DNA of 64,000 nucleotides from Pontibacter pudoricolor (GTDB lineage: Bacteria > Bacteroidota > Bacteroidia > Cytophagales > Hymenobacteraceae). The stretch is from positions 1,612,001 to 1,676,000 of the forward strand of contig NZ_CP048106.1 of assembly GCF_010092985.1 (NCBI RefSeq), given 5' to 3'. Below are positions 1 to 64,000 of this stretch, one piece after another. Within the stretch, counting starts at the first letter, position 1, and each line of letters begins with the position of its first letter. Position numbers and translations under genes: made by a program. The notes below the pieces were generated by a model. The model ran no database searches, was not told where the DNA came from, and saw only the letters and a list, made by a program, of their open reading frames with translations.

Positions 1-2
1 TG

Positions 3-1814
3 GCAAAACACCGTGATGCATACGCCATGTCTGATAACACTGTAAAAGACCCTGTACGGATGCAGAAACTGAATGCCTTCTTCTTCTGGACCTCGTGGGC
101 CTGTGTTACCGAACGTCCGGGTAAAAATATCACCTACACCAATAACTGGCCTGCTGAAAAGCTGGTAGCCAACGAGCCAAGCAGCGACCTGATCATCTGG
201 ACAGGTTTCAGTGTCATTAGCCTGATAGCTGGTGTGGGCCTGCTTGCCTACTATTATGCTTCTAACAAAGAGGATGACATAGACCTGAGCAAACTGCCAA
301 AGAAAGATCCTTTGCTGGGCTTAAATGCCACGCCATCTATGAAAGCAACCTTAAAGTATTTCTGGATAGTGACAGCCCTTATACTCGTGCAGGTTACATT
401 GGGAGTTGTGTCGGCCCACTACGGTGTAGAAGGCCAGGCCTTGTATGGTTTCCCGCTCGCCGATTACCTGCCCTACTCTATTACTAGAACCTGGCACGTG
501 CAGCTCGCCATTTTCTGGATAGCTACCTCCTGGCTGGCAACCGGTCTATACATTGCCCCCGCTGTGTCGGGCTACGAGCCAAAATTCCAGAAACTGGGGG
601 TAAACTTCCTTTTTGTCTGCCTGCTTATTATAGTTGCAGGTTCGTTGGCTGGGCAGTGGTATGGCATCATGCAGAAACTGGGATACACTGAAAACTTTTG
701 GTTCGGACATCAGGGGTATGAATATGTAGACTTAGGGCGCTTCTGGCAGATATTCCTGTTAGTAGGCTTATTCCTGTGGCTGGGCCTGATGGTGCGCGCT
801 ATTCTGCCTGCTTTCCGGAACGATGCAGAAGGGCGTCATCTGCTGGGTATGTTCCTGATCTCATCGGCTGCAATTGCTATCTTCTATGCATCCGGCCTGA
901 TGTGGGGACAGCATACCAACCTGGCCATTGCCGAGTACTGGCGCTGGTGGGTAGTTCACCTGTGGGTAGAAGGCTTCTTCGAAGTTTTTGCTACCGTGGT
1001 AATTGCCTTCCTGTTTGTGCGCATGGGCCTGCTGGATACTAAAATGGCAACATCGACAGTACTTTTCTCTACCATCATTTTCCTTTTCGGAGGTATTATC
1101 GGTACGTTTCACCACTTATACTTCAGCGGTACGCCAACTGCTGTAATGGCCCTGGGTGCTACATTTAGTGCCCTGGAAGTTGTGCCGCTTGTACTTATTG
1201 GTTTTGAAGCCTACCATAACCTGAAAATAAGCCGCCTTACCCAGTGGATCAAGGCGTATAAGTGGCCCATCTACTGCTTCGTGGCCGTAGCTTTCTGGAA
1301 CCTGGTTGGTGCAGGTGTGTTCGGGTTTGTGATCAATCCGCCAATTGCACTTTATTACATGCAGGGGCTGAATACAACACCTGTGCACGCACACACTGCT
1401 CTTTTCGGGGTATATGGTATACTTGGTATAGGGCTGATGCTGTTTGTACTGAAAGGTCTGTCCGGCCGTCGCCGCTGGAAAGATGGTGTAATAAGCTTTG
1501 CTTTCTGGTCCCTTAACATTGGCCTTATCCTGATGGTACTGATAAGTGTGCTTCCTATCGGGCTTATGCAGACGTGGGCAAGTGTGGAATACGGCTTATG
1601 GTATGCCCGCTCTATGGAGTTTATGCAGACAGACACCATGGAAACACTGCGCTGGCTACGGGTTATTGGTGACACGATCTTTGCTGGTGGTATTGTTGCC
1701 TTAGCCTGGTTCATCATCGGTCTTAAAACAGGTTGGTCGCTAGAGCAGGACGAAGATGTGCAGGACATAGACCTCATCCAGACACAGGAAGATGAACTAA
1801 CTATAAAAAAGTAG
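3..1814 (+). CDS. norZ: Quinol-dependent nitric oxide reductase (qNor), 5'-truncated by the window edge
   Basis: This integral membrane enzyme reduces 2 NO to N2O with electrons from quinol. The frame is open to the left edge (codons read through from base 3), so the methionine at 27 is probably not the start and the N-terminal part lies outside the window. Counting from that methionine, the heme-copper core ligands are visible: H157 (low-spin heme), H311 with E315 in VHLWVEG, H362-H363 in GTFHHLYF (FeB site) and H454/H456 in HAHTALFG (hemes). About twelve membrane segments follow a soluble stretch containing SYTNNWP-type residues (ITYTNNWP), typical of qNor rather than the cytochrome c-linked NorB. 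A hairpin terminator follows the stop. It is the NO-to-N2O step feeding the NosZ enzymes encoded 26-36 kb downstream. Family assignment is confident; the true start cannot be seen. Confidence 0.93.
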   Translation, partial: AKHRDAYAMSDNTVKDPVRMQKLNAFFFWTSWACVTERPGKNITYTNNWPAEKLVANEPSSDLIIWTGFSVISLIAGVGLLAYYYASNKEDDIDLSKLPKKDPLLGLNATPSMKATLKYFWIVTALILVQVTLGVVSAHYGVEGQALYGFPLADYLPYSITRTWHVQLAIFWIATSWLATGLYIAPAVSGYEPKFQKLGVNFLFVCLLIIVAGSLAGQWYGIMQKLGYTENFWFGHQGYEYVDLGRFWQIFLLVGLFLWLGLMVRAILPAFRNDAEGRHLLGMFLISSAAIAIFYASGLMWGQHTNLAIAEYWRWWVVHLWVEGFFEVFATVVIAFLFVRMGLLDTKMATSTVLFSTIIFLFGGIIGTFHHLYFSGTPTAVMALGATFSALEVVPLVLIGFEAYHNLKISRLTQWIKAYKWPIYCFVAVAFWNLVGAGVFGFVINPPIALYYMQGLNTTPVHAHTALFGVYGILGIGLMLFVLKGLSGRRRWKDGVISFAFWSLNIGLILMVLISVLPIGLMQTWASVEYGLWYARSMEFMQTDTMETLRWLRVIGDTIFAGGIVALAWFIIGLKTGWSLEQDEDVQDIDLIQTQEDELTIKK

Positions 1815-1851
1815 TAGCTATAGTTACATAAATACTTCTTGATGCACTTCC

Positions 1852-1890
1852 AGGAATGGCTGTCCAACTATGGGCAGCCATTCCTTTTTT
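1852..1890 (+). terminator. Rho-independent terminator after qNor
   Basis: An 11-bp perfect stem (1852-1862 with 1875-1885) is followed by a T-run. It lies 38 bases after the qNor stop. Confidence 0.85.
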
Positions 1891-1976
1891 CTGAGGCTGG
1901 TCTTCTTTAGGTATTACGTTAGTTAGCAGGTAGAAATTTTATGCTTTCTTGTGCATAATTCAGACCTTTACAGGTG

Positions 1977-4520
1977 ATGTCATCAATAACCATACTTCAG
2001 AATTTACCTGACTTACCTGTTAAGGAAGCCCTGCCGCGCCTGCTTGCTGCCCTGGAAACCAATACCAGGGTTGTGCTGGAAGCGCCGCCCGGAGCAGGTA
2101 AAACCACCCTCGTTCCGTTGGCATTGCTGGAAGCTGGCTGGCGCAACAACGGTAAAATCCTGGTACTGGAGCCACGCCGCCTGGCCACCCGCGGAGCCGC
2201 ACAACGCATGTCGGACCTGGTGCATGAGCCACTCGGGCAAACGGTTGGATACTGGGTTCGGATGGAGCATGTGGTATCTAATAAAACGATAGTTGAGGTA
2301 GTAACGGAAGGAATTTTAACCCGGTTGATTCAGGATGACCCGGCTCTGGAAGGAATTGCAGCTATCATTTTTGATGAGTTTCATGAGCGCAACCTGCAGG
2401 CTGACTTAGGTCTTGCATTGGCACTGGATGCCCAGGCAGTGCTGCGCCCCGACCTCCGGATACTGGTGATGAGCGCCACACTGGATGCTGTAACTATAGG
2501 TAAGTGGCTGGATGCACCTGTTATTACAAGCGAAGGCCGTCAATATCCTGTCGAAACACATTACCTGCCCACTTCCGAAGTGGCTGCGGCAGGAAACAGA
2601 CCGGCGGAAAGACTGAGCAATCTGGTACCCAAGGCAATACGAAAAGCGTTAACCGAACAACCGGATGGCGATGTACTGGTATTTTTGCCCGGCATGGGGG
2701 AAATGCGAAGGGTCGCTACACAACTGGAAGGCAAACTGGCACCAACTATAGACCTGCATATTTTGCACGGAGATCTGCAATTATCAAAACAAATGGCTGC
2801 TATACAACCTGCACCCAAGGGCAGGCGCAAAATAGTACTCGCCACCAGCATTGCCGAAACCAGCTTAACTATAGAAGGTGTAAAAATTGTGATAGATGGC
2901 GGCTATTCCCGTGTTCCTGAATTTGTACCCCGCACCGGGTTAACTACGCTGGCAACTATACCTGTTTCAAAAGCTGCCGCCGACCAGCGCCGCGGCCGGG
3001 CCGGGCGTCTGGGGCCGGGTGTGTGTTACAGGCTTTGGTCCACTGCCGACCAGGTGCAGTTAGCTGACAGGCAAAACCCTGAAATATGCGAAGCAGACCT
3101 AACCGGGCTGGCTCTGGAACTTGCCATGTGGGGCGTAAAAGATGCAGTTGCCTTAAACTGGCTGGATGTACCGCCCTCCGCTGCCATGGCACTTGCCCGC
3201 GATCTGTTACTTCGCCTGGAAGCTATAGATACAACCGGTAACGCTACAGCACACGGAAAAGCACTGGCATCGCTTGGCCTTTCTCCAAGACTGGGGCACC
3301 TGGTTATTCGTGGCCGTGAGTTTGGGTTTGGAGCTACAGCCTGTGCCTTAGCTGCTTTGTTATCTGAAAAAGACATCCTGAAGCAGCTGGAAACCGGGCG
3401 TGGCAATATTCTTCCTGATCTTCCCCTGCGCCTGGAATTTTTATCGGGTAAACGTCCGCCAATACCTGGCTTTGTGTTGGATGAAAATGCCCTCCGACGT
3501 GTGAAAGAACAGGCACAACACCTGATGCAACGCACCCGCAGTGCCAGCGAAACTATAAAACCGGACGCAGCAGGAATCTTAACCGCTCTCACCTACCCCG
3601 ACCGTCTGGCCCAACGCGAGTCATCGGGCCGTGTAAGAATGGTAACCGGGCAACGGGCCGCTTTGCCGACTGAGCTTTTCAGCGAAGCAGATTTTTATAG
3701 TATTGCGCATCTGGAGACCGGGAATCAGCCTCGTATATTGCTGGCTGCACCACTTAACAAGACAGAGTTGCTGGAGCACTTTGCAGAACAAATGGAGGAG
3801 TTGGATGAAGTCAGATTTGATGAAGCCACTGGCAGAGTGACAGCCCGTAAAATTACCCGGTTAGGTGCATTAATTCTGCAGGAAACCAACCAGCCGAATC
3901 CTGATCCTGAGCATGTAGCTACTATACTTTTAAAGGCCCTTAAGGAGAAAGGAATTGATAAACTTCCCTGGTCTGAGCAGGCTATAAATACCCGGCAGCG
4001 CCTGGATTTTCTGCATCAACTGGTACCTGAACTATGGCCCGATGTTTCGGATAAAACGCTAGAAAAAACGATAGAACTATGGCTTCTGCCGCATTTGTCT
4101 GGCTTACGAACTATAGAACAAGTGGCCAGGTTAGATTTTAATGAAATGCTGTTGTCGGACCTGAGCTGGGAACAACGGCAGGAAATGGACCGGCTGGCCC
4201 CAACCCACCTGGAAGTACCAAGTGGCTCACGCATTGCGTTGAACTATACAGACCCAGTCACCCCTGTACTTGCCGTGCGCCTGCAGGAAGTATTCGGGAT
4301 GCTGGATACGCCCAGAATTGGTGGTGGCAAAGTGCCTCTGCTGATTCACCTGCTCTCCCCTGCCTCACGCCCCGTACAGGTTACCCGCGACCTGCGCAGT
4401 TTCTGGACAAACGGCTATTTCGATGTCAGGAAAGATCTCCGTGGACGTTATCCCAAACACCACTGGCCCGACGACCCACTGGCAGCTGTTCCGACGCGTG
4501 GCATTAAAAGACCTCAGTAA
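1977..4520 (+). CDS. hrpB: ATP-dependent RNA helicase HrpB (DEAH/DExH family)
   Basis: Superfamily 2 DExH helicase of about 847 residues, close to the roughly 810 of Escherichia coli HrpB. Visible motifs are Walker A APPGAGKTT near residue 40, the DEFH box near 135, SAT near 168, and a Q/R-rich motif VI (DQRRGRAGR). The C-terminus carries the HrpB-specific tail with HHWPDDPLAAVPTRG. The frame begins with a GTG immediately before an ATG; I chose the ATG at 1977. The gene stands alone between the qNor terminator and a small open frame, and its stop runs directly into a copy of the AACTATAGTT palindrome. Its exact RNA substrate is not established in this phylum. Family assignment is firm. Confidence 0.95.
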   Translation: MSSITILQNLPDLPVKEALPRLLAALETNTRVVLEAPPGAGKTTLVPLALLEAGWRNNGKILVLEPRRLATRGAAQRMSDLVHEPLGQTVGYWVRMEHVVSNKTIVEVVTEGILTRLIQDDPALEGIAAIIFDEFHERNLQADLGLALALDAQAVLRPDLRILVMSATLDAVTIGKWLDAPVITSEGRQYPVETHYLPTSEVAAAGNRPAERLSNLVPKAIRKALTEQPDGDVLVFLPGMGEMRRVATQLEGKLAPTIDLHILHGDLQLSKQMAAIQPAPKGRRKIVLATSIAETSLTIEGVKIVIDGGYSRVPEFVPRTGLTTLATIPVSKAAADQRRGRAGRLGPGVCYRLWSTADQVQLADRQNPEICEADLTGLALELAMWGVKDAVALNWLDVPPSAAMALARDLLLRLEAIDTTGNATAHGKALASLGLSPRLGHLVIRGREFGFGATACALAALLSEKDILKQLETGRGNILPDLPLRLEFLSGKRPPIPGFVLDENALRRVKEQAQHLMQRTRSASETIKPDAAGILTALTYPDRLAQRESSGRVRMVTGQRAALPTELFSEADFYSIAHLETGNQPRILLAAPLNKTELLEHFAEQMEELDEVRFDEATGRVTARKITRLGALILQETNQPNPDPEHVATILLKALKEKGIDKLPWSEQAINTRQRLDFLHQLVPELWPDVSDKTLEKTIELWLLPHLSGLRTIEQVARLDFNEMLLSDLSWEQRQEMDRLAPTHLEVPSGSRIALNYTDPVTPVLAVRLQEVFGMLDTPRIGGGKVPLLIHLLSPASRPVQVTRDLRSFWTNGYFDVRKDLRGRYPKHHWPDDPLAAVPTRGIKRPQ

Positions 4521-4627
4521 ACTATAGTTTTAGCCAACTATAAAATACTATAACTCAGTTGCATCTTTTGTGTAGTCTCTCCGTCATCATGGTGTAATAG
4601 ATCTTAAACAGATAAAAATAAAGCACC

Positions 4628-10981: not shown

Positions 10982-12269
10982 AGGAAAAAGGTTTTAGTTC
11001 CTGAACTTTATGCAGTAGCAATTGAAACACATTGGCCGTGTATAGCAACGATGTGATAGTAAAGCCGATAGCACCGGCAAGTATGATCTGTTGGTTGTTC
11101 AGCAGCACGCCTGTTACCAGCAGCAGATACCCAAACAGGTAACTATAGTTTTGCCAGCGCTGAATGGCATGGTTGTAAAGGTCTTTCGGAAGCGGGGTTT
11201 TAAAGCGGCCCACATAGTCTTCATACGCATGCATCCAAACTATAAAAGGCAATGTTTTAAAGGTTTGCCCTAGGATAATGGCAGATATAAAGCCCAGGAA
11301 AACCGAGATGCCATACACTAAATACACAGCTGAAAGCAACTGTTGTGGCAACGCAACCTGACTGCTAACTATAAACACCAGTACAATGGGTAAAAGCAAC
11401 AGGGCAAGGGCCACAAATGTCTGTTTCATGCCCAGGTCCATGTCATGACGCTGTCGTGTTTTGCTGGTCTCGTAAATGAATACCATAAACGATAGAATTC
11501 CGGCAACAACCAGAACCGCATACACCGGCAGTAACGCCGTATGAAAGAACAGGTGATCGAAAATGAAGAACACCAAGCCGGCATTGATCAGGTTATAGCT
11601 CCAGTTCAGTTTCTTAGTGCTCTCGGCGTGTGCCAGCAAAAACATCGGGATCAGTTTGGAGCCTACCCCGATAATGAGCAGCAGGAACCAACCGGCCATG
11701 CCAATATGCGCGTGCAGTTTTAAATAATGGGTGTGCTCTACCGGCAGAAAAGCCATTGTAAAGTTCAGCACCATGATCAGCCCCACTATACCCGTAACCA
11801 GCAACCAGATAGCCGAAGTAACTATAAAGTCAGATTCAATGGTCCATTTGGGTGCCAAGCGAGCCGTCTGGATTACGTTGATATTGAAGAGTATAAAAGA
11901 GATAACTAAACTACAGGCAGCAATGTGCATGACATGCCCTAACTCAAAATTCCAGAAGCACCAGGCTAAAAGTATCGTTCCTATTCCTAAAAATCCGAAG
12001 GCTATAGTTGCCAGTTTTTCAGAATATAGTTTGCAGTCGAGCACTACCGGCAGTAACTGGTACAGTGCCCCGAAAATAAGCATGGTTGCCCAGCCAAGTG
12101 CTGCCACGTGTGTTAAGGTCAGCAGCTTCGGGTGGAAGTAATGACCGCTAAAGGCATCGGTAGAGAACAGCAGTAAAATACTGAGCGCAACAAAAGCCAG
12201 GGCAGCAAAAGCGTAATGCGGCAGCACAACCCATTTGCCCGGCGAGTTGGATGTAGTGGCAGTGCTCAT
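10962..12269 (-). CDS. Heme-copper/NnrS-like integral membrane protein
   Basis: A 435-residue, roughly twelve-helix membrane protein. Histidines sit in helix settings that recall heme proteins: HPKLLTLTHVAALGW near residue 45, HTHYLKLHAHIGMAGW near 180, and a WMHAYEDYVGRF stretch near 340. Such proteins are often labelled cytochrome c oxidase subunit I-like or NnrS-like in Bacteroidota. The full catalytic ligand set of an oxidase or NO reductase is not evident. It lies between a DUF2249 gene (7 bases upstream) and the DUF59 gene (20-base overlap) in the NO-stress block. NnrS is a heme/copper membrane protein that protects metal centres during NO stress; that role is inferred from context. Confidence 0.6.
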   Translation of the reverse strand: MSTATTSNSPGKWVVLPHYAFAALAFVALSILLLFSTDAFSGHYFHPKLLTLTHVAALGWATMLIFGALYQLLPVVLDCKLYSEKLATIAFGFLGIGTILLAWCFWNFELGHVMHIAACSLVISFILFNINVIQTARLAPKWTIESDFIVTSAIWLLVTGIVGLIMVLNFTMAFLPVEHTHYLKLHAHIGMAGWFLLLIIGVGSKLIPMFLLAHAESTKKLNWSYNLINAGLVFFIFDHLFFHTALLPVYAVLVVAGILSFMVFIYETSKTRQRHDMDLGMKQTFVALALLLLPIVLVFIVSSQVALPQQLLSAVYLVYGISVFLGFISAIILGQTFKTLPFIVWMHAYEDYVGRFKTPLPKDLYNHAIQRWQNYSYLFGYLLLVTGVLLNNQQIILAGAIGFTITSLLYTANVFQLLLHKVQELKPFSYGNASV

Positions 12270-13115: not shown

Positions 13116-13616
13116 TCAAGCCCGGGCTTTTACATTCCAGAATTCAGGAGTAAAGGTATCCAGGCGCGGGTCGTGTTTATGAGAAAGCAGTTTACCGGTC
13201 AGCTCCAGCTCGTCAGGGTTTGCCATCAGTTGCACATACGGAAACAGCTCTCTTTCTTCCCAGCGAATGTGGTCATTGAGGTCTCTTTCCAGTACTTTGA
13301 ACAGCTCTTTATTCATCGGGCTGCCACTTTTTATTAAGTCAACTATAGTTTGCAGCAACCTGTGCTCTTCTGCCAGTCGTGCCCTCACGGTATCATCTGA
13401 TTTCAGCACTCTTTTCAGTATCCACTCTTCTTCTTCGCAATGCTCTTTCAGAATGGTCTCCCAGAAATAGCGCACATAGGTACGCATCAGTTCCAGGTCG
13501 GTTCCGTTCTTCAGTCCCTGGCGTATCTTCCAGCAAAACAACAATCCGAAGTGGTGTTCACGGGATAGTGGCACCAGGCTCTTATCTCTTTTCTGGGGTG
13601 CTATTGCGTTTTTCAT
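13116..13616 (-). CDS. Hemerythrin HHE domain protein
   Basis: A 166-residue four-helix protein with candidate diiron ligands H21/H22 (REHHFG), H59 with the following glutamates (KEHCEEEEW), H85 (EEHRLL), H116 and E120/E121 (NDHIRWEERELFPY). The spacing fits the HHE cation-binding family, which binds O2 or NO or senses redox state. It is the first gene of the block hemerythrin, DUF2249, NnrS-like, DUF59, Rrf2. Its upstream gap toward ric is occupied by a 111-bp inverted-repeat element, so it may be expressed by read-through from ric. Confidence 0.88.
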   Translation of the reverse strand: MKNAIAPQKRDKSLVPLSREHHFGLLFCWKIRQGLKNGTDLELMRTYVRYFWETILKEHCEEEEWILKRVLKSDDTVRARLAEEHRLLQTIVDLIKSGSPMNKELFKVLERDLNDHIRWEERELFPYVQLMANPDELELTGKLLSHKHDPRLDTFTPEFWNVKARA

Positions 13617-18200: not shown

Positions 18201-18521
18201 TTAGGCTATGAATACCTCAACCGGAAAGACCTGGTGCACGTGCACCCCGAAGAGCCGGAAATTATAGATGAAAAGCCTGTTACTGAAAACTTACCGGAGC
18301 AGGCAGCAACTATAGTTTCTGAAACTTCAACCACGAAAAGTAATGGAAAAAGCTATTCTGTTGTTACCCAAAGCAGGACGGTGCTGATGGAACAGACACA
18401 GCAGGTACTGGCCAGCATGATGGGCGATGCGCCGATCTGCAACGTTTGCGGCCATATAACTATACGCTCCGGCACCTGTTATAAATGTCTGAACTGCGGC
18501 AATAGTTTAGGCTGTAGTTAA
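15222..18521 (+). CDS. nrdJ: Vitamin B12-dependent (class II) ribonucleotide reductase
   Basis: A 1099-residue adenosylcobalamin-dependent enzyme making deoxyribonucleotides without oxygen. Family features are the active-site cysteine segment HACFILSVQD, NPCSEY at about 387-392, APTGTIGLLMDCDTTG, and a C-terminal zinc-ribbon-like tail with CNVCG and CYKCLNCG that would re-reduce the active site. A TSCPD-type segment (FTQKAKIDGHTVYIRTGEYADG) lies near residues 900-915. Three LGYSS tripeptide-like repeats in the middle are each encoded by a copy of the dispersed CTATAGTT motif. Its position among NO and denitrification genes fits growth at low oxygen. The start at 15222 gives a basic N-terminus; a slightly later start is possible. 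Confidence 0.95.
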   Translation: MKKSKRAAGLSFSRHFTTAAQNAYDMFRFELRSSTIRNPTGDVVAELNDVEVPAQWSQIATDILAQKYLRKAGVPQADGRTGSEKSAKQVVHRLVKCWQDWGSKYGYFASEKDALVFYDELVYMLLGQYAAPNSPQWFNTGLYNSYGISVKSQGHYYVDPATGEMKESTSAFERPQPHACFILSVQDDLAQKGGIMDLLVQEARVFKYGSGVGTNFSNIRGKEEELSGGGTSSGLMSFLRVSDRAAGAIKSGGTTRRAAKMVCLDLDHPEIQEFINWKKDEEKKVAALIAAGYSGDFEGEAYNTVSGQNSNNSVRVPNTFFKALHQNGAWHLTARTTGKVLKSIPARSLWNQIADAAWACADPGLQFDTTINEWHTSPAEGRINASNPCSEYMFLDDTACNLASLNLLRFFDEGKQRFDVAAFEHACRLWTVVLEISVLMAQFPSEAVAQRSYDYRTIGLGYANLGALLMVQGLPYDSDEARALSAGITSLMTGTAYRTSAEMAASLGAFAKYDINRDAMLRVTRNHRFATFDQPENYDNLSIKPHGLDQQLCPDYLLKAAQKSWNEALQQGEKYGYRNAQATVIAPTGTIGLLMDCDTTGVEPDYALVKYKKLSGGGYFKIINQSIPSALSKLGYSSDEIEAIVNYAKGHNSLTGAPHINPESLLKKGFTEEEITLLEAALPKAYDLSSLFNIYTLGKACLERLGYSSAEYQTPGFNLLQALGYSSKQIEETNDYVCGTMTVEGAPYLKPEHYTVFDCANRCGTKGKRFIHAEGHIKMMAAVQPFISGAISKTINLPNETTVEEVAHCYELSWELGLKACSIYRDGSKLSQPLTSKSSSTETEEKTEEKVTITETQFNAEQVLQAAKAILSDASNNGFREELTRMVERRKLPDKRNGFTQKAKIDGHTVYIRTGEYADGSLGELFIDMYKEGASFRSILNCFAISVSLGLQYGVPLDEFVNRFTFTRFEPAGRVEHPNIKSATSVFDYIFRMLGYEYLNRKDLVHVHPEEPEIIDEKPVTENLPEQAATIVSETSTTKSNGKSYSVVTQSRTVLMEQTQQVLASMMGDAPICNVCGHITIRSGTCYKCLNCGNSLGCS

Positions 18522-19592: not shown

Positions 19593-20906
19593 CTAGCTAA
19601 CTTTCTTTAAAGCAGCAACAGCTTTATTGCCGGCAGTTACACTTGTAGTTTGCAGCTGAGAGATAAAGAACAGCAGGACTCCCACCGGTAAAAGTATACT
19701 TACTCCAAAAAGCATTTCATTATAGTTAGGTATCGCTCCGGCTCCGACCCAATAGAAGATCCCCTGCAAAAACAGTAATGCTTCGCTACCGATAAAGCCA
19801 GCGATAAAAAGCCCCATCCCCCATTTGCTTACAGCTGATCTTAGACTTAACCACCCCTGCTGCACACAAAAGGCAACTATAAAAAAGCTTACAAACCCGA
19901 TCAGCACCAGGTGCAGGTACCCGATAATAAAGTTGCGCAACTGATAGGCTAAATCAGCCATGTACGGAAAGGCGGTGGAGAACTGCATCAGGGTTTTAAG
20001 CACAAATGCCGTGGATACAAGCAGAACTATAGTTTTGCTCCAGTTGCCAAATAAGTTCAACACTTGCTTACGGATAGGCCAGACTATAGCCACCAAAATT
20101 ACCAGGGCTATTACCTGTGCAAATGCTGCCACTCCACCCACTAAATAAACTATGGCATCAGGTTTTATCCAAAGCACAGATAGTAAATAAGCCGGTAAAC
20201 ATGCCCAGAACATCACCCTGAAAAACAGCAAACTATAGTTGCGGTTAAAGCTGATCTTGTGCGACTCAAGTAACCAGAACACCAAGCCTAACACGGCAAA
20301 AGTAAGCCAGCCGTTGTACAGAAAATGCAGGTAGAAATAAATGGCGTTATAGTATAGTTCGGTGCCGCTATGGCCCGTTGCCATAATCGGGCCCATTGCC
20401 CACGGCCCCAGCGACGAAAGCGCCAGGAAAAACAGCGCAGCTTTCACAAACCGAAAAGACAAACTATAGTTACCCGAATTTAAATTTACTGCTTTTGCAT
20501 CTCTCAGAAACTGGTAGATGAACCAGTAAGTAAGCAAAATATGGAGCGTTGAAAAGGTGATAGAAACAGCGCCATAACCCTGCACCGGAAAACTCAGCAA
20601 CATACCTAATACCGCACACTGCGCTAACCAGAACTGCCAGCTATAAATTGCTTTGTTCCTGAACGACGCAGGCAGATAAGCATGTATCAGCGCTATGAAA
20701 AGCACCGGGTAAAGCCAGCCCAGCAATGCCGCATGCGAGTGGGCATGCAACAGGTATTTATAGTTGAGGCCGGCAACAGGTTGTATAAAAGTCCAGCGCA
20801 GCAACAGGCCCAGCAGGGCAATTATGACCAGGCTAAGCAAGGCGCTTAACAGCGGTAAACGCCATTTACCTAAGTCTATAGTTACGTTGTTATCGGTTAC
20901 AGGCAC
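19593..20906 (-). CDS. Second NnrS/heme-copper-like multi-pass membrane protein
   Basis: A 437-residue protein with about twelve membrane helices. The first large histidine cluster, LLHAHSHAALLGWLYPVLF near residue 52, resembles the heme-binding helix of NnrS and heme-copper proteins; further histidines are in YLHFLYNGW and YLHLVLIGF. It differs clearly in sequence from the protein at 10962-12269 but has the same general layout. The GTG start overlaps the upstream lipoprotein stop by one base, indicating translational coupling. Function in NO or respiratory metabolism is inferred from neighbours. Confidence 0.6.
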   Translation of the reverse strand: MPVTDNNVTIDLGKWRLPLLSALLSLVIIALLGLLLRWTFIQPVAGLNYKYLLHAHSHAALLGWLYPVLFIALIHAYLPASFRNKAIYSWQFWLAQCAVLGMLLSFPVQGYGAVSITFSTLHILLTYWFIYQFLRDAKAVNLNSGNYSLSFRFVKAALFFLALSSLGPWAMGPIMATGHSGTELYYNAIYFYLHFLYNGWLTFAVLGLVFWLLESHKISFNRNYSLLFFRVMFWACLPAYLLSVLWIKPDAIVYLVGGVAAFAQVIALVILVAIVWPIRKQVLNLFGNWSKTIVLLVSTAFVLKTLMQFSTAFPYMADLAYQLRNFIIGYLHLVLIGFVSFFIVAFCVQQGWLSLRSAVSKWGMGLFIAGFIGSEALLFLQGIFYWVGAGAIPNYNEMLFGVSILLPVGVLLFFISQLQTTSVTAGNKAVAALKKVS

Positions 20907-23513: not shown

Positions 23514-23596
23514 TTTACTGGCTTGTGGCAATCTTACCAATATCTGTAACCCACTGACCTACAGCTCGTTTTTATAGTTTACCAACTACTTAAGCT

Positions 23597-23903: not shown

Positions 23904-23922
23904 TAAAGCAAACTATAGTTTG

Positions 23923-31362: not shown

Positions 31363-31365
31363 GGC

Positions 31366-36634: not shown

Positions 36635-36663
36635 CTTAATTATGGTTTTGAATTTAAATGCTC

Positions 36664-37875: not shown

Positions 37876-37930
37876 GTACCCTTAAGGTTACTTTACATAA
37901 AAACTATACTATAGCACTGATAACTATAGT

Positions 37931-39824: not shown

Positions 39825-39987
39825 ACTATAGTTTCTTACATCTTTACGTTTGTAATACGCCATTATAGTAAGCCGGAATCAGGACCAGTTTCAGTGCAAA
39901 AAATCATCAAAAGTGAGTATTGCGCTTGGTATAATTTAAGCTCATATTTATAATTCTGTATAAAATGAATTTGCAGGAGCTTACCGT

Positions 39988-42652: not shown

Positions 42653-42970
42653 AACAGCTTACCCTGACGGCTATGGTGAAAACACTAACAATGGCTCGTT
42701 TTTCTCCTCCATAAACTCTAAACAACTTCATTACCCGCTCAGCAGGCACACGATCTAACTCTTAGTTATAGCTCTATAGGTTCCACCAGACCACACTATC
42801 ATAACTATAGCAGATAAATTCTTTAAACTATAGTTACTGTACAGGCAACCCCTCTACTTCTTTCCTCATCTTTAGCTCAACCAATACCAAAATTCTCTCT
42901 TCTGTTCGTCCTGAAACGAGGGATGTTAGCAGGCAAAAAACTATAGTTCATCTAATTTTTAAATAGTACC

Positions 42971-46119: not shown

Positions 46120-46281
46120 GTTTGCGTACAAGCCTTATTGTTTATTCGCAACTATAGTTATAGGTTGTTTTTTTACAGAAGCGCCGCTACGTATAGTATT
46201 CTTGTTTCCAAAAGAAAAAATTGGCAGAAGGTTATTAATGAAAAGGTAGCGCCTTCGGAAAACAGCCTGCAAACAGTGTTC

Positions 46282-50122: not shown

Positions 50123-51034
50123 ATGTTTACCTTTTTCCGCCGGCCATTTGTGCTGATCGTCCTGCTTATAGTGCTGGTTGCTTCCGCTTTTTTCTTTCTT
50201 ACACCTGATGCGGCACGTTCCTCCTCGGTACAGCCTGAACAGGAAGAAACTATAGTTGCAGTTAATGATACTGCCGATACAATACCTGTTTCTGAAACCG
50301 TACCTGTTAGTGACCTCCCTGCGGATGCTGAAACTATGCTGGCGCGTAAACAGGTACCCATTTTATGTTACCACCAGCTTCGTAACTGGCGTCCGCGCGA
50401 TTCTGAAATGGCAAGGACCTACATTGTGGAAGAAGAGAATTTCAGGAACCAGATAAAAATGCTGGCCGACAGCGGCTATCACTCCATCCTCCCCGACCAG
50501 CTCTACGACTACCTGCTGCACAACAAACCGCTGCCCGAAAAGCCTGTTATGTTTACTTTTGACGACACAAACCTGGACCATTATACCGTTGCCGCTCCGG
50601 TGTTAGAAACGTATGGTTTTAAGGGAGTGTTTTTTGTAATGACAGTATCGCTGGGGCGGCCAAACTACATGACCAAAGCGCAGGTAAAGGAATTGTCAGA
50701 TGCCGGCCACGTAATAGGCTCGCACACCTGGGATCATCAGAATGTAAAAAAATACACGGAAAAAGACTGGCCAACGCAAATAGAAAAACCATCGCGACAG
50801 CTGGAAGAAATAACCGGTAAGCCTACTGAATACTTTGCCTACCCTTTCGGCTTTTGGAATGAGGCCGCTATTCCTGAACTCAAAAAGAGAAATATAAAAG
50901 CAGCTTTCCAGCTTGCCACCTCCAGAGACGCAAACGAACCACTTTACACAATTCGCCGCATTATAGCCAGTGGGTACTGGTCACCAAAGCAACTGCATAA
51001 AAGCTTGATAAATAGTTTCCAGGATGGGAAATAA
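50123..51034 (+). CDS. Polysaccharide deacetylase (CE4/NodB), membrane-anchored
   Basis: A 303-residue protein with an N-terminal membrane anchor (about 8-27), a Ser/Thr/acidic linker and a NodB-homology domain. Motif 1 is TFDDT at 145-149 (usually TFDDG), motif 2 SHTWDH at 200-205, with metal ligands D147/D148, H201 and H205; AYPFGFWNE is motif 3. It removes acetyl groups from N-acetylglucosamine polymers. With the GH and GT2 genes nearby, it could take part in exopolysaccharide formation, but the genes are not an operon. Confidence 0.9.
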   Translation: MFTFFRRPFVLIVLLIVLVASAFFFLTPDAARSSSVQPEQEETIVAVNDTADTIPVSETVPVSDLPADAETMLARKQVPILCYHQLRNWRPRDSEMARTYIVEEENFRNQIKMLADSGYHSILPDQLYDYLLHNKPLPEKPVMFTFDDTNLDHYTVAAPVLETYGFKGVFFVMTVSLGRPNYMTKAQVKELSDAGHVIGSHTWDHQNVKKYTEKDWPTQIEKPSRQLEEITGKPTEYFAYPFGFWNEAAIPELKKRNIKAAFQLATSRDANEPLYTIRRIIASGYWSPKQLHKSLINSFQDGK

Positions 51035-51982
51035 GGGTAGGTTACAGTGTAATGATCAGCTTAATCCAACCACACCGTCATCTCCTCAGCGCCACGCTCG
51101 CTACCTTCGAAATCGCTTCCCGGTAGCCTAAGGCAGGGGACTTTCAGGCCTTTGCTATAGTTGGAGTTATAGTTTGTTTTATGGTTTTACCCCTTCCCAG
51201 CCTTCCCCTTTAAAAGAGGACTCCTTCCCCCAGAACAGGGGAAGGAGTTTGATTTATGCTATAATCTTGATTGTAGTTCTATAGTTCATATTGCTGGCGC
51301 GAGCGCCCCCGCTCGTGACTTACGATGGTGTTGAGTCTCCCGACTCAACTGGCCCGCCAGGGACAAGGAATTGTCTGAACCGGGATTAAGTGAGATTTGG
51401 AGGATTTTTGGGATAAAGGTTATTGCTATAGTTGATGTTTTCGTTTTATAGTTGTGGTTTTAACCCACCCCTACCCCTCCGAGGAGGGGAATTTCAGCTG
51501 TTGCTATAGTTAGATGAATTGTTCTATAGCTACTGCCCACGAACAGGACTGGTCGCGACCTGTCCCTGCGGAACTATAGCCACGATAATGCGATGCAACT
51601 ATAGTTTCTCCAAGCAACTATAAAGTTAGCTATCGAACTGATCGCAGTCTTTGGGTTGAGCGCCTTTGATTTGTTGCGGTGCCGCCAGGCAACCCGAGGT
51701 ACGAGGGTAGCAAGAAAGCAGCAGCGCGATGCCCTTATCGAGGGCCCCTACCCCCAAGACGGGGCTTCCCGGCCGTGAGGGCACCAAAGCTAGCTATAGA
51801 ACTATAGGTAAGTAGAGCTCCCAGGATTAGAAGTAACTATGAAAGAAAGGCTTAGTTCGAATAGCAGAGTGGCAAACTATAGAATCCAGATTTCTCCTGC
51901 TGTCGAAATGACAAAAGAGAACTATAAGACACATAAGCCCCTTCGGCTAACGACCAGGACCTTAGCAACATGCAACATTACC
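51035..51982. other. 948-base repeat-rich intergenic region
   Basis: No credible gene. It contains a terminator at 51221-51250, a decayed end of the TGTCTGAATC element near 51371, several C/G-run hairpins, short GC-rich inverted repeats (51299-51330) and about eight CTATAGTT/AACTATAG copies, the highest local density in the window. A 91-codon frame on the + strand overlaps the end of the next gene and seems spurious. Confidence 0.6.
51221..51250 (+). terminator. Terminator downstream of the deacetylase gene
   Basis: A 10-bp perfect stem (51221-51230 with 51238-51247), CTCCTTCCCC with GGGGAAGGAG, followed by a short T-run. It is 187 bases after the stop. Confidence 0.65.
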
Positions 51983-58400: not shown

Positions 58401-59913
58401 AGGCAGCCCTGTTCTCACCTGGACCTTCGACAACATTATGCTGCCAGACAGCAACAGAAACGAACCGGGCAGCCACGGCTATATCCAGTTCAGTATTAAA
58501 CCTAAGGCGGACCTGCCAGAGAAAACTTTAGTGGAGAACTTTGCAGATATCTTCTTTGACTTTAACTCGCCAGTTCGCACCAACATTACCACAAACCGCA
58601 TTTACGACATGCCGGAAGTTATAAGCGAAGCAGACAGACTAGAAGCAGATGATGTTATCGCAACCCCAGGCATTATTGGTTTTACACCGGAAAGCGGCAA
58701 GTTTGGGGCAGAAGTTATCATTAATGGCAAAAAGTTCGCTAACGAGCCGGCACTGAATAAGGTATACTTTAATGATTTACCGGCAACTATAGTTTCGGCT
58801 ACTGAAACAGAGTTAAAAGTTATAGTACCGGCCAATGCCACCTCGGGTAATTTAAAGATCCAGACAAACGATGGCGTAGCGCAAAGCACCGATGGTTTTG
58901 AAGTGTATCAGCCTCCTGTTGTCAGTGCTTTCTCACCGAAAGAAGGTATTTCAGGAACTACCGTAACCCTGGAAGGCAGCCATTTAACTGAAGCATGGCT
59001 GCAAACTATAAAACTGGGAAATCAGGTTTGTGAGATCATCAGCAGAGAAGGTAATAAGGTAGTTGTAAAAGTACCGCAAGGCGCTGTAACAGGTACGTTT
59101 GAAGCCATTAGCAAAGGCGGCGAAGCAAAGACGATTGATGCCTTTGTAGTATGGCACCAGCCGGCTATAACTAACCTGAGCAAAACCACAGATAAAGCTG
59201 GCGCAACTATAGAGATCGCAGGTGCTAACTTTGCCTCTGCTCCTGAACGAAACACTGTAAAGTTTGGAACCGTGCCGGCCAGGGTGTTGCAGGCAACTGC
59301 AACTGTATTAAAAGTACAGGTACCAAAAGGTGCCGAAGATGGTCGGGTAACTATAGAAACGCCAGGCGGCATAGCAGAAAGCACTGTTCATTTCACTTTT
59401 ATTCCGGCGCCTGAAGTACTTGCCTTTACCCCTGCTATTGGCACTGTTGGCACTGATGTTGTGCTAACCGGAAAGCACTTTTTGACACTCGGAAAACCTG
59501 ATACTATTACGTTTAACGGCCAGAAGGCGGTAGTGCTGGAAGCCACTCCTACGCTGCTTAAAGTAAGGGTACCGCGTGGGGCAAGCTCGGGTAAAATAAA
59601 GGTAGCCGGTGTTGGAGGTTATGCTGTAACAGCTGATGAGTTCAGAATTGAAGAGCTTAGCCCGGAACAGGCCATTGAAGTTTACCCGAACCCGACTACC
59701 GGCAACTTCACCATCCGGTTTATACACGCTGATTTCGAAGTGCAGCAGGTGCAGTTGTTCTCGACTTTGGGGCAGTTGGTTTATTCAGAAAAAGTAAACA
59801 GCCCGAGACCTGATCAACTGGAAATAAAGCTGGCTACTCCTAAACCAGGTATGTATATGCTGCATATAAAAACCGAACGTGGACTGGTTATCAAAAAACT
59901 GAATGTGCTGTAA
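55423..59913 (+). CDS. Large secreted NHL-repeat / SdrB-like / IPT-repeat protein with T9SS sorting tail
   Basis: A 1496-residue protein: signal peptide (about 1-26), six or more NHL-type beta-propeller repeats to about 560 (GNIYVADTDNHRIQKFDSNG is a clear example), a SdrB-like domain around 592-675 (SGTIYNDANSNCIKEDEPGL), DUF11/DUF7619-type domains to about 1085 (SYDPNDKQVTPTGL; FADIFFDFNSPVRTNIT), four IPT/TIG domains to about 1420 (GTTVTLEGSHL, GATIEIAGANF) and a type IX secretion tail (VYPNPTTGNFTIRF). Base composition changes abruptly near 57,460: about 23% GC in one sampled 60-base line before (55561), about 48% after (57781). The CTATAGTT motif is absent from the first half and present in the second. 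The gene may be a fusion. Domain functions are extracellular adhesion or binding, unspecific. Confidence 0.88.
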   Translation: MRTTVLTFWLIFFWLIFALHLPLIAQDHDYKLKSIMGQSLSWPLDFAIDNNDNIYVADNLSLKIFNNGGQILKEHVFNDGKTKYGYSGVTVAADSKGHFYVIRGDSKVYKYTIDGDIVMSFGGLGTAPGLFKSPSDIELDNLGNIYVADTDNHRIQKFDSNGNLLQIIGSFGYEKGKLYEPRQIKIDSNFNIYIAERNRFQRFNPDGSQDIMIDYEGPSGIAIDSVGNFYLSYWGRYYVKKFDTNGVLLNTYFSKGSAEGYIYGVNTRLAFDSKGNFYIMEDDHSSLHNRIQKLSPDMKPISSFGNTGRGMRSQVEPGFQMEFDFEGNFYSVSEDKVKFFNKNGDFILSFGWVGDKDIFNSYRIRDIALDKYGDVYILTSDTKGTVHKFSPTGNYIASFHQTPIDPESNFLPTRLFFDRGNNMYLLQDAKCYKFNHEQKLISKFTFEVPYNEYGLLYPIKDILVDDTGLIHMAHNSYIKTFTPEGKLIRQFKALDKAPEKWELISSFALDNKGFVYVVDQLTIRKFSKDGNLVATIPGNRGYNVSLNSKISVRPDGSEIRVGLNSDGFLKTVKIYQNGIVPVTNILSGTIYNDANSNCIKEDEPGLEGTVIEVQPGPYYVRSNKDGRFSVEVGVGEYNIKQIIRSVPGREIEQICPSNSQTHKVAFSSAGNIKADINFGNKVTLSPYLTTSVSSTRRRRCFESTTKITYANAGYAPAENAKVYLQLPKEIELLSADKPYTKQSNNTYVFDVGTVAPGETRTITIQDKVTCGDESVRGLTVCTRAWISTGKLPEKPIATVTGECDPATGRVRFVIHNTGPQDMETGKLFRIYRDGKLSTVEQYKLAGGDSLVLWIPAVGKTLRLEAEQPDGNGDNTLASATIEGCQAGGSNTPISTGFVNALPPDEEEAEAAEECLLITDSYDPNDKQVTPTGLTSENYTPTGVALTYKIRFQNTGTDVAYRVVVVDTLSENLDISTLQMGSASHNYRFDVTGKGSPVLTWTFDNIMLPDSNRNEPGSHGYIQFSIKPKADLPEKTLVENFADIFFDFNSPVRTNITTNRIYDMPEVISEADRLEADDVIATPGIIGFTPESGKFGAEVIINGKKFANEPALNKVYFNDLPATIVSATETELKVIVPANATSGNLKIQTNDGVAQSTDGFEVYQPPVVSAFSPKEGISGTTVTLEGSHLTEAWLQTIKLGNQVCEIISREGNKVVVKVPQGAVTGTFEAISKGGEAKTIDAFVVWHQPAITNLSKTTDKAGATIEIAGANFASAPERNTVKFGTVPARVLQATATVLKVQVPKGAEDGRVTIETPGGIAESTVHFTFIPAPEVLAFTPAIGTVGTDVVLTGKHFLTLGKPDTITFNGQKAVVLEATPTLLKVRVPRGASSGKIKVAGVGGYAVTADEFRIEELSPEQAIEVYPNPTTGNFTIRFIHADFEVQQVQLFSTLGQLVYSEKVNSPRPDQLEIKLATPKPGMYMLHIKTERGLVIKKLNVL

Positions 59914-62583: not shown

Positions 62584-62701
62584 GGCTGTTCGTGTTTGGT
62601 TTCCCTCATGATGCAGCACGCCACACGATTCCATAAATAAATATTAAAAATTTTTAATTGATCGTTTTTGTGTTTCTTTAAATCTGGATCTCAGCACAAT
62701 T

Positions 62702-63289
62702 ATGTTTCTAAAGTTTTTCAAAAAGGCCGACCCACCCGACGACCTGCAGCTGGTGCAACAGTACCGGGCTACAGCCGATATGGATTGCCTTGGCGAGCTT
62801 TTTGAACGACATACCGAAATGGTGTACCTGGTTTGCCTGAAGTACCTGCGCGACGAGGAAGAAAGCAAAGATGCTACCATGCAGGTTTTCGAGAGCCTGA
62901 CCGAGCTGTTGCTGAAACACGACATTGCTAATTTTAAAAGCTGGCTGCACGTTACCACTAAAAACCATTGCCTGATGCAGCTGCGGGCTAAAAAAGGAAA
63001 AGAACAGGTACGCTTAGAAGATGCCTCGCCGCCGTTTATGGAAAACAGCGATCTTTTTCATCTTAGTGATGCCGAGCAGAAAGAAGAGGACGAAAAGCTG
63101 CTGACACAGGGCCTGGAAACTTTGCCGCCAGAACAACGAACCTGTGTAGAGCTGTTTTACCTGCAGCAAAAGAGTTATAAAGAGATTGCCGGACAGACAG
63201 GCGGCGACCTGAACAAAGTAAAAAGTTACATACAAAACGGGAAACGGAACCTGAAACTATACATGGAGAAACACCATGAACCACGCTAA
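62702..63289 (+). CDS. ECF-type RNA polymerase sigma factor
   Basis: A 195-residue sigma-70-family factor. Region 2 is at about residues 25-90 (LFERHTEMVYLVCLKYL, KDATMQVFESL) and region 4 at 133-185 (LPPEQRTCVELFYLQQKSYKEIAGQTG). It would bind core RNA polymerase and redirect it to extracytoplasmic-stress promoters. The ATG of its presumed anti-sigma factor lies inside its last codons (14-base overlap), so the two are coupled. Confidence 0.92.
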   Translation: MFLKFFKKADPPDDLQLVQQYRATADMDCLGELFERHTEMVYLVCLKYLRDEEESKDATMQVFESLTELLLKHDIANFKSWLHVTTKNHCLMQLRAKKGKEQVRLEDASPPFMENSDLFHLSDAEQKEEDEKLLTQGLETLPPEQRTCVELFYLQQKSYKEIAGQTGGDLNKVKSYIQNGKRNLKLYMEKHHEPR

Positions 63290-64000
63290 CCACCACATAC
63301 ACTTCGGTGCAGACGGGCACCCGACCCTGGAATTGCTTCGGCAATACCAGGAAGGCTTGCTATCGTCTGCCCTGAGCCACCGGCTGGAGCGCCACCTGCT
63401 GGACTGTGAACTATGCACGGATATAGCCGAGGGCATGGCTTTATCAGATGCTACCCAAACCAAAGCTGCCGTTTCCGATATTAACCAGCGTTTAACTATA
63501 TCTAAAGAAAAACACGGAACTGCAGCCTGGTATTCTGACTGGCGTGCCGTAGCCGCTGTATTTGTGCTTCTCTGTTCGGCTGTAATGGTATTTTATTATC
63601 AGTATACCAACTTACAAAATGGACCTGAAACTATAGTTGTAGAAAAAGCTACTGAAAAGCCTGAAACTATAGCTCCGGAGCCAACTATAAACTACGCGCC
63701 TCCTATTGCTACGCTGGATGCTGAGGTAACTGAAGAAGTAAAGCCCACTCAGCCTATAGATAAACCAAAACTGAATACAGCTAAAACTATAGTTGCTGCT
63801 GATCCGCTAGACAAGTTTATAGCTGGTGACGAAGTAATTCTGGATGAAGAAACTATAGCTAAAATTGCAGATGCAGATATAACTGAGTCGGTAGCTTTGG
63901 GAGAGGTTACATTTGATTTCAAAGCTGACAGCACAGCAACTATAGCTACTGTAAAACCAAAAGCCAGGGCAGCTACAGCCCCGCCAATGAGTCTTCAGCG
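63276..64000 (+). CDS. Anti-sigma factor with zinc-finger-like N-terminus, partial at window end
   Basis: The frame begins ATG 63276 and is open to the last base, so it is incomplete at its 3' end (more than 241 residues). N-terminal motif ERHLLDCELC gives the H40-x3-C44-x2-C47 arrangement of zf-HC2 anti-sigma domains. A single membrane helix (about 91-107) follows. The extracytoplasmic linker repeats ETIA/ETIV/TIVA peptides, each encoded by a copy of the ACTATAG motif. Overlap with the sigma gene supports a sigma/anti-sigma pair that binds the sigma factor until a signal arrives. The C-terminal domain lies beyond the window. Confidence 0.85.
   Translation, partial: MNHANHHIHFGADGHPTLELLRQYQEGLLSSALSHRLERHLLDCELCTDIAEGMALSDATQTKAAVSDINQRLTISKEKHGTAAWYSDWRAVAAVFVLLCSAVMVFYYQYTNLQNGPETIVVEKATEKPETIAPEPTINYAPPIATLDAEVTEEVKPTQPIDKPKLNTAKTIVAADPLDKFIAGDEVILDEETIAKIADADITESVALGEVTFDFKADSTATIATVKPKARAATAPPMSLQ

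What the first reader, a model, noticed from the sequence alone, without database searches (positions are those of the whole stretch)
1..64000. Highly iterated palindrome AACTATAGTT across the chromosome segment
About 80 half-site octamers were counted by eye in 64 kb, roughly 30-fold over a base-composition expectation of about 2.6. The palindrome is found in genes in several reading frames and both orientations, in intergenic DNA and often abutting stop codons. Selection for protein sequence cannot explain this, so the signal is at the DNA (or RNA) level. It recalls the HIP1 element of cyanobacteria (GCGATCGC), uptake sequences, or target sites of a solitary methyltransferase or nucleoid protein, but none of these is demonstrated.
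Basis: partly seen in the sequence, partly recalled or inferred. Interest (0 to 1): 0.85.

Follow-up and report, generated by a model that had tools for sequence, protein, structure and literature searches.

The report
Iterated DNA motif with species dialects
Bacteria of the genus Pontibacter carry thousands of copies of a short DNA 'watermark' whose spelling differs between species; it looks like the self-recognition tags that some bacteria use when taking up DNA, although the usual DNA-uptake pili appear to be missing here.

Summary
AACTATAGTT occurs 22 times in the window (shuffles 0.07) and 1164 times in the 4.34-Mb genome (reversed control 8). The palindrome is not the basic unit: that is the asymmetric AACTATA(G), one per 340 bp in 464 kb; the palindrome is two overlapping units. 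The genus is Pontibacter. Its 50 genomes show dialects: AACTATAG (5), AAGTATAA (22), AGGTATAG (12), with 11 low in all three. Three carry two dialects; matched positions switch dialect by one C/G change. Where alignable, units arose mostly by substitution and are conserved beyond controls; in genes they exceed codon shuffles 6.6-fold; there is no replication-strand bias; small replicons are poor in them. This resembles DNA-uptake-sequence dialects of Neisseriaceae, but T4P/T2SS platform genes were found in 0 of 50 genomes and no receptor was found. Best reading, inferred and untested by uptake: a self-DNA watermark kept by a pilus-independent import system. Methyltransferase, Chi and mobile-repeat readings fit worse.

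The parts
1..64000 (.). whole window: 196 oriented copies of the unit AACTATA (105 of them AACTATAG), spread over both strands
4520..4529 (.). AACTATAGTT; first base is the last base of the stop codon of ORF 1974-4520 (+)
11141..11150 (.). AACTATAGTT inside ORF 10962-12269 (-)
13341..13350 (.). AACTATAGTT inside ORF 13116-13616 (-)
18308..18317 (.). AACTATAGTT inside ORF 15222-18521 (+), class II ribonucleotide reductase
20025..20034 (.). AACTATAGTT inside ORF 19593-20906 (-)
20231..20240 (.). AACTATAGTT inside ORF 19593-20906 (-)
20462..20471 (.). AACTATAGTT inside ORF 19593-20906 (-)
22571..22580 (.). AACTATAGTT inside ORF 22269-23513 (+), proline dehydrogenase
23506..23515 (.). AACTATAGTT overlapping the stop codon of ORF 22269-23513 (+)
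23911..23920 (.). AACTATAGTT between ORFs, 2 bp from the end of ORF 23923-24690 (-)
37922..37931 (.). AACTATAGTT sharing the stop codon of ORF 37931-38395 (-)
38071..38080 (.). AACTATAGTT inside ORF 37931-38395 (-)
39824..39833 (.). AACTATAGTT sharing the stop codon of ORF 39381-39824 (+)
41557..41566 (.). AACTATAGTT inside ORF 41341-42219 (+)
42826..42835 (.). AACTATAGTT between ORFs
42939..42948 (.). AACTATAGTT between ORFs
46150..46159 (.). AACTATAGTT between ORFs
50248..50257 (.). AACTATAGTT inside ORF 50123-51034 (+)
51597..51606 (.). AACTATAGTT between ORFs
58785..58794 (.). AACTATAGTT inside ORF 55423-59913 (+)
63629..63638 (.). AACTATAGTT outside listed ORFs of at least 110 aa
63785..63794 (.). 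AACTATAGTT outside listed ORFs of at least 110 aa

Best explanation
The iterated sequence is a DNA-uptake-sequence-like watermark. The unit AACTATA(G) marks chromosomal DNA of this Pontibacter lineage. An as yet unidentified surface or periplasmic DNA-binding protein is inferred to prefer DNA that carries the unit during natural transformation. Fragments with the unit are imported and recombined more often, so point mutations that create a unit spread by biased transformation and those that destroy one are replaced. When the binding protein shifts specificity, the genome-wide set drifts to a new dialect (AAGTATAA, AGGTATAG, AACTATAG). SHOWN here: copy number, asymmetric unit, dialects, origin mainly by substitution where alignable, conservation, matched-position dialect switches, no replication-strand bias, scarcity on four small replicons, no hit to the T2SS/T4P platform family. 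INFERRED: uptake, receptor, competence, and drive by transformation rather than by another process.
For: Thousands of copies with one sharp consensus: AACTATA 1367 against 17-254 for each of the 21 single-mismatch forms in 464 kb. Three related dialects in 39 of 50 Pontibacter genomes; on an RNR tree of 39 rows (Pontibacter and four outgroup rows) the states need at least 8 changes (9 if two-dialect genomes are a state of their own): AAG is spread over most of the tree, AGG is one clade, AAC appears in two places. Three genomes with two dialects at once, as reported for a Neisseriaceae genome (PMC3630211 section 6). In the two sister genomes AAGTATA is 11 of 19 and 15 of 35 of the single-substitution states facing an AACTATA, but 0 of 26, 1 of 22, 0 of 6 and 1 of 9 in four genomes of the AACTATAG dialect. 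Conservation above control 7-mers in all six relatives that carry AACTATA in force. Few gaps at aligned units, 3-12 per relative. 700 copies on the skew-leading and 667 on the lagging strand. Small replicons poorer than main contigs: observed/expected 0.9, 1.0, 2.0 and 5.0 against 8.8-9.8. Riemerella, also Bacteroidota, transforms with proteins unlike the known machinery (PMC8459023 passages), and R. columbina prefers its own DNA with no uptake sequence identified (PMC7965970 section 16). ComEC is present in 50 of 50.
Against: Uptake was not tested, and none of the 12 papers shown (of 1,088) holds the word Pontibacter. ComEC is present also in the 11 genomes low in the three dialects, so it does not discriminate. 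T4P/T2SS parts, on which the known uptake-sequence systems depend, were not found. The one receptor candidate tested (DUF5689) does not track the motif: 22 of 50 genomes, beside SusC/SusD-like genes in the window genome. Spacing is more clustered than random (CV 1.28 against 1.13), whereas known uptake sequences are reported as somewhat more regular (PMC1626085 passages). Only 2-3 of 63 intergenic palindromes extend to a hairpin. The AGGTATA dialect is not denser in intergenic DNA (1.2 against 1.5 per kb). Two low-density chromosomal stretches, L007 and L008, are not visibly mobile. From 31 to 156 of the 196 window units fall outside the aligned DNA, depending on the relative, so the history of those is unknown.
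Confidence: 0.6

Rival explanations
1. Binding sites of an abundant nucleoid or chromosome-organising protein whose specificity evolves by dialect; selection keeps about 3 sites per kb on the chromosome.
For: Dense, genome-wide, in coding and non-coding DNA, conserved, sparse on small replicons, tandem copies at spacings 8, 12 and 20.
Against: No such protein identified. Selection on more than ten thousand sites (extrapolated from 464 kb) that also re-spells itself between sister species is hard without a drive. 11 of 50 species are low in all three dialects. Spacings 8, 12 and 20 come largely from one recurring intergenic linker.
Confidence: 0.17
2. HIP1-like element tied to a DNA methyltransferase that recognises the motif.
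For: The AACTATAGTT form is palindromic and iterated as HIP1 is; HIPs are linked to orphan methyltransferases in cyanobacteria (PMC4390886, abstract start in the listing and passages).
Against: The unit is asymmetric and the other dialects are not palindromes. PF01555 methyltransferases are found in 31 of 50 genomes but not in four of the five AACTATAG genomes; the fifth, G161, has only partial matches. PF07669 matches 47 of 50 genomes: strong in G161 and G184 but weak and partial in G000, G164 and G155, so no strong hit is common to the five. PF02086, PF00145 and PF02384 were not searched.
Confidence: 0.08
3. Chi-like or other replication/recombination-polarity sites.
For: Iterated, conserved, dense on chromosomes, sparse on small replicons.
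Against: 700 against 667 copies on the skew-leading and lagging strands, p = 0.39; 3.5-fold denser between genes in four AACTATAG genomes; overlapping inverted pairs enriched.
Confidence: 0.04
4. A transfer drive other than transformation (for example motif-biased packaging by a gene transfer agent, or motif-directed repair or gene conversion), or a neutral context-dependent mutation bias.
For: Any process that copies motif-bearing alleles preferentially would give the same pattern of substitution, conservation and dialects.
Against: A pure mutation bias should also act on resident small replicons, which are poor in the motif, and would hardly demand the same 7-8 bases in all contexts. No transfer-agent genes were sought.
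Confidence: 0.11

Closest known systems
DNA uptake sequence (DUS) dialects of Neisseriaceae (Frye et al. 2013, PMC3630211: abstract and section 6 read)
   Same: Thousands of copies; clade-wise dialects differing by one to few bases; a genome with two dialects in nearly equal numbers; transversions between dialects; some family members without an obvious repeat.
   Different: 7-8 bp against 10-mers; no T4P/T2SS platform protein found in the genus; no receptor known; uptake never shown here; phylum Bacteroidota.
Uptake signal sequences of Pasteurellaceae (Redfield et al. 2006, PMC1626085: passages read)
   Same: No orientation bias, coding and non-coding copies with non-coding excess (in the AAC and AAG dialects), origin by point mutation rather than insertion, subclade variants.
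   Different: Density 2.9 per kb for the 7-mer core (1.6 per kb for AACTATAG) against about 1 per kb; spacing clustered rather than regular; no pilus platform genes.
HIP1 of cyanobacteria (Elhai 2015, PMC4390886: abstract start in a listing, and passages read)
   Same: Short, highly iterated sequence, very high observed/expected, function unproven.
   Different: Unit here is asymmetric; palindrome only in one dialect; no matching methyltransferase found in the two families searched.
Natural transformation of Riemerella (PMC8459023 passages, PMC7965970 passages and section 16)
   Same: Bacteroidota; DNA import with ComEC but with surface proteins unlike the known machinery; preference for own DNA in R. 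columbina.
   Different: No uptake sequence identified there (their k-mer table lists A/T-rich runs); the DUF5689 candidate does not track the motif in Pontibacter.

Membership tests
DNA uptake sequence (DUS/USS) | very many copies of one short motif, about 1 per kb | tested here: met
   AACTATA 1367 and AACTATAG 747 oriented copies in 464 kb; AAGTATAA up to 3584 and AGGTATAG up to 2713 per strand
DNA uptake sequence (DUS/USS) | perfect copies far outnumber singly mismatched ones | tested here: met
   7-mer: 1367 against 17-254 per variant; 8-mer: 747 against 1-398 per variant, the highest being the A at position 8
DNA uptake sequence (DUS/USS) | no orientation bias | tested here: met
   700 against 667, p = 0.39, strands assigned by GC-skew sign
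DNA uptake sequence (DUS/USS) | preferentially non-coding but many copies in genes | tested here: inconclusive
   met for AACTATA (7.0 against 2.0 per kb), AAGTATA (3.3 against 2.0) and TAGGCCA (2.7 against 1.5), not for AGGTATA (1.2 against 1.5)
DNA uptake sequence (DUS/USS) | arises by substitution, not insertion | tested here: met
   3-12 gapped units per relative against 37-162 aligned without gap; 31-156 of 196 units not alignable
DNA uptake sequence (DUS/USS) | dialects that follow phylogeny | tested here: met
DNA uptake sequence (DUS/USS) | scarce in mobile DNA | tested here: met
DNA uptake sequence (DUS/USS) | more regular spacing than random | tested here: not met
   CV 1.28 against 1.13 simulated
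DNA uptake sequence (DUS/USS) | type IV pilus with a sequence-reading minor pilin | tested here: not met
   PF00482 in 0 of 50 with 13 of 14 controls positive; PF00437 only short partial matches, 3 of 50 over the cut-off; minor pilins themselves not searched
DNA uptake sequence (DUS/USS) | motif increases DNA uptake | not testable with these tools
   needs an uptake assay
HIP1 / methyltransferase-linked palindrome | palindromic unit | tested here: not met
   unit AACTATA(G/A/C) asymmetric; other dialects not palindromic
HIP1 / methyltransferase-linked palindrome | co-occurring methyltransferase | tested here: inconclusive
   PF01555 and PF07669 do not track; other methyltransferase families not searched
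Chi / KOPS | bias to one replication strand | tested here: not met
mobile repeat family | copies share flanks and insert as a block | tested here: not met
   diverse flanks; few gaps against relatives where aligned; 23 recurring linkers only

The most novel reading that the evidence does not exclude
Pontibacter (and, with other spellings, a few Hymenobacter-like species) possess a sequence-specific self-DNA import system built without type IV pili. Its unknown receptor has changed specificity several times within one genus, re-spelling thousands of chromosomal sites each time. It would be the first uptake-sequence system outside the pilus-based Neisseriaceae and Pasteurellaceae known to me (recalled, not from a call).
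Probability: 0.5. Interest if true: 0.95.

Novelty: new variant of a known kind. Interest (0 to 1): 0.86.

Why it matters
If it is an uptake sequence, it shows that self-DNA watermarks evolved independently in a phylum some of whose members import DNA without the familiar pilus machinery. It gives a genus with three dialects, three two-dialect genomes and motif-poor species in which to find the receptor and watch specificity evolve. It could also explain why Riemerella-type Bacteroidota prefer their own DNA, and give a practical tag for transforming hard-to-engineer Bacteroidota. If it is not an uptake sequence, a genome-wide code of thousands of sites with species dialects and no known reader is at least as surprising.

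Tried and rejected
Type IV pilus/T2SS genes: PF00437 gave only short P-loop matches (3 of 50 just over the cut-off) and PF00482 gave 0 of 50, so a ComP-type receptor was dropped. DUF5689, the Riemerella candidate: 22 of 50 genomes and missing from many motif-bearing ones; it sits beside SusC/SusD-like genes in the window genome, beside a TonB-type receptor in G149, and inside a large endonuclease/LTD protein in G152; dropped. ComEC presence (50 of 50) and its neighbourhood in the window genome gave no lead; the ComEC neighbourhoods fetched from five other genomes were used only for k-mer counts or not at all. Methyltransferases PF01555 and PF07669 do not track. Terminator role: 2 of 63 intergenic palindromes have at least 8 of 9 flanking pairs (0.28 expected) and 3 have at least 7 (1.22 expected); dropped as a main role. 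Chi-like strand bias: none. Even spacing: not found. RNA-level role: copies are in excess on both strands of genes (472 against 83 and 282 against 31 by codon shuffle), so a DNA-level signal is preferred. A test of L007/L008 as mobile DNA failed: their genes look ordinary. A small contig of G183 (L245) was fetched but not counted, since G183 has no clear dialect. The first tree was wrong because minus-strand loci had not been turned; it was discarded and redone. The first conservation controls (seven 7-mers) were replaced by 90 permuted 7-mers. Papers: nine searches; no title or abstract start listed there names these motifs or an uptake sequence in Pontibacter; AACTATAGTT, AAGTATAA and AGGTATAG as whole words hit 0 papers. 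Subscription papers are not held.
Full report
WHAT WAS CHECKED. AACTATAGTT occurs 22 times in the window; 100 dinucleotide shuffles give a mean of 0.07 and a maximum of 1. In the whole genome (one contig, 4,344,619 bases) it occurs 1164 times; the reversed string occurs 8 times.

THE UNIT IS ASYMMETRIC. In 464 kb of this genome (window plus 20 stretches of 20 kb), AACTATA occurs 1367 times counted on both strands, one per 340 bp. The next base is G in 55%, A in 29%, C in 12% and T in 4%; bases further out vary much less. Each of the 21 single-mismatch 7-mers occurs only 17-254 times; the commonest is AAGTATA. The palindrome is two units overlapping by CTATAG: 123 unit pairs sit at that offset, and TT follows AACTATAG in 33% of cases against 10% background.

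WHERE IT LIES. By my own ORF calls (361 genes of at least 100 aa), intergenic DNA holds 570 units in 87.6 kb and genes hold 753 in 376 kb, with 44 on edges. Within genes the count is 754 (one more by a slightly different count) against about 114 after shuffling synonymous codons within each gene, with both orientations in excess. Density peaks within 25 bp after stop codons, where TAA or TAG supplies part of the unit. By GC-skew sign, 700 units lie on the leading and 667 on the lagging strand (p = 0.39). Units are somewhat clustered.

DIALECTS. In 204 family genomes AACTATAGTT is iterated in force only in five of the 50 genomes of this genus: G000 1164, G155 1300, G161 1087, G164 1124 and G184 1477. 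Three are intermediate (G191 330, G159 232, G195 104), two have 27-28, and the other 40 have 0-18; the 154 genomes of other genera have 0-8. The genus is not otherwise empty: de novo 7- and 8-mer counts in about 20-60 kb per species find AAGTATA(A) or AGGTATA(G) in its place in most species sampled. Whole-genome counts give AAGTATAA at 1116-3584 per strand in 22 genomes and AGGTATAG at 1397-2713 per strand in 12 genomes; reversed controls are mostly below 100 and at most 183. G161 carries a lesser set of AAGTATAA as well (1080 and 1045 per strand). G195, G159 and G191 carry both AAGTATA and AACTATA in force and are counted among the 22. Eleven genomes (G154, G160, G163, G174, G175, G179, G181, G182, G183, G187, G193) are low in all three; they are larger (median 5.8 Mb against 4.3-4.75 Mb, p = 3.5e-6, not corrected for kinship). 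Five of these eleven (G154, G175, G181, G183, G193) were sampled de novo and showed no comparable motif; G181 and G154 have weak ones of their own and G183 a weak excess of AACTATA and AGGTATA. An unseen dialect is possible in the rest. Contig lengths and record titles identify the genus as Pontibacter: G164 is P. populi, G161 P. fetidus, G155 P. burrus, G195 P. vulgaris, G172 P. mucosus.

BEYOND THE GENUS. In genus g4 (called Hymenobacter-like here by inference; no call names it), CTAGGCCA is iterated in 4 of 120 genomes (G034 2322, G036 2137, G130 2180, G122 1296 on the forward strand; the other 116 have 9-274), and one further species shows AACCTAGGT in 20 kb; most of the other g4 species sampled by 18-20 kb show nothing clear. 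In the non-Pontibacter named loci of at least 9 kb the best 8-mer scores z 5-11, one local repeat (L235) apart; Pontibacter species with a dialect score 17-52, and the two without score 7 and 9.

HISTORY OF SITES. Against syntenic DNA the unit is kept in 119 of 162 aligned places in G164 (control 7-mers 491 of 968), 66 of 137 in G161 (209 of 826), 36 of 74 in G184 (121 of 438), 27 of 69 in G155 (87 of 387), 36 of 81 in G195 (137 of 514) and 53 of 148 in G159 (173 of 844); Fisher p from 6e-3 to 6e-8. Against G152, which uses AAGTATA, it is kept in 1 of 37 (control 35 of 295, p = 0.15). In G195 and G159 AAGTATA is the commonest single-substitution state (11 of 19 and 15 of 35); in the four relatives of the AACTATAG dialect it is 2 of 63 in all. 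Seen the other way, AAGTATA places of G195 (89 aligned) and G159 (123) are AAGTATA in the window in 12 and 16 and AACTATA in 11 and 15, out of 31 and 41 single-substitution states. Gaps at aligned units are few (3-12 per relative), but 31-156 of 196 window units lie outside the alignments. So where it can be followed the unit arises mainly by point mutation, is held above control, and matched units switch dialect. On a ribonucleotide-reductase protein tree of 39 rows the AGG group is one clade, AAC appears in two places, and AAG is spread over most of the rest; at least 8 changes of state are needed with two-dialect genomes scored as AAG, 9 with a state of their own.

REPLICONS. On small contigs of four AAGTATA species (G147 204 kb, G148 116 kb, G152 139 kb, G166 74 kb; 20-60 kb of each read; probable plasmids, that of G166 with a transposase, cation-ATPase and efflux genes) AAGTATA is observed/expected 5.0, 1.0, 2.0 and 0.9, against 8.8-9.8 on 40-60 kb of larger contigs of the same genomes.

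MACHINERY. The T2SS/T4P platform family PF00482 is found in 0 of 50 Pontibacter genomes (13 of 14 control genomes positive), and PF00437 gives only short partial matches. ComEC (PF03772) is in 50 of 50, with one stop inside in G186 and in G167. Riemerella, also Bacteroidota, is transformable; in the passages I saw, its transposon screen names ComEC, DprA, a DUF5689 surface protein, a helix-hairpin-helix protein and an outer-membrane protein, and says that four of the essential proteins resemble nothing in the well-known machinery (PMC8459023). Transformation of R. columbina is competed by an equal amount of its own DNA but not of R. anatipestifer or E. coli DNA, and that paper's raw k-mer table did not yield an uptake sequence (PMC7965970 section 16). 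DUF5689 itself does not track the motif in Pontibacter. Methyltransferase families PF01555 and PF07669 do not track it either.

INTERPRETATION. The combination of thousands of copies with one sharp consensus, dialects by clade, two-dialect genomes, origin by substitution, no strand bias and scarcity on small replicons is that of DNA uptake sequences (PMC3630211 section 6; PMC1626085 passages; scarcity in integrative elements from the title and abstract start of PMC7371117 in the listing). A self-reinforcing drive by biased import explains how thousands of sites can be re-spelled between sister species. What is not shown is uptake itself, a receptor, or competence of Pontibacter. What does not fit is irregular spacing, absence of pilus genes, ComEC in motif-poor species and the missing intergenic excess in the AGG dialect. 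I therefore say that it works like an uptake sequence with probability about 0.6, and I do not file it as a member of the pilus-dependent family. A chromosome-organising protein remains the chief rival.

Noticed in passing
about L002:9103-9317, L012:19227-19332, L013:3944, L015:15739-16038, L019:16573-17028, L020:1490-1942 and others in the window genome: Intergenic mosaics of recurring modules (for example AAATTCCCCTCTTGGGAGGGG, GGTCGCGACCTGTCC, ATTTCTCCCGCTGGTCGAAATGACA) joined by a ~30-bp linker with phased units, consensus AACTATARAACNATANCNNNAACTATAGCAA; 23 places with the 20-bp spacing in 464 kb, all intergenic by my ORF calls.
   Followed up: partly
window 23923-37200: Two tandem copies of a nos-like operon (ABC transporter, NosD, NosL, protein with nos_propeller, cytochrome c; three genes of the second copy were scanned); the stretch is poor in AACTATA, with a 4.2-kb gap at 28876-33078.
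   Followed up: partly
G147:C1:1944098-1946633: Tandem array with AGGTATAG at a period of about 66 bp, 39 copies in a capped list, in a species of the other dialect.
   Followed up: no
L147:15750-17159 and onward: Serine recombinase gene beside a stretch of several kb with few units, perhaps a small integrated element.
   Followed up: no
G152:C6: A 139-kb contig with a methyltransferase gene repeated exactly 74,337 bp apart, perhaps a plasmid assembled twice.
   Followed up: no
L235 (Ignavibacteria MAG, 13 kb): ACCAATTA/AATTACCA occurs 22 times against 0.2 expected, probably a local repeat.
   Followed up: no
L089 (g3) and L181 (Adhaeribacter terrigena): Weak excess of AAACGCTA in both (12 against 0.9 each), perhaps another, sparser dialect.
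   Followed up: no
L002 and other G000 loci: GGTCGCGACC is the next most over-represented palindrome after AACTATAGTT among the top 10-mers of the 464-kb sample (22 double-strand counts against 0.24), as part of the intergenic modules.
   Followed up: partly
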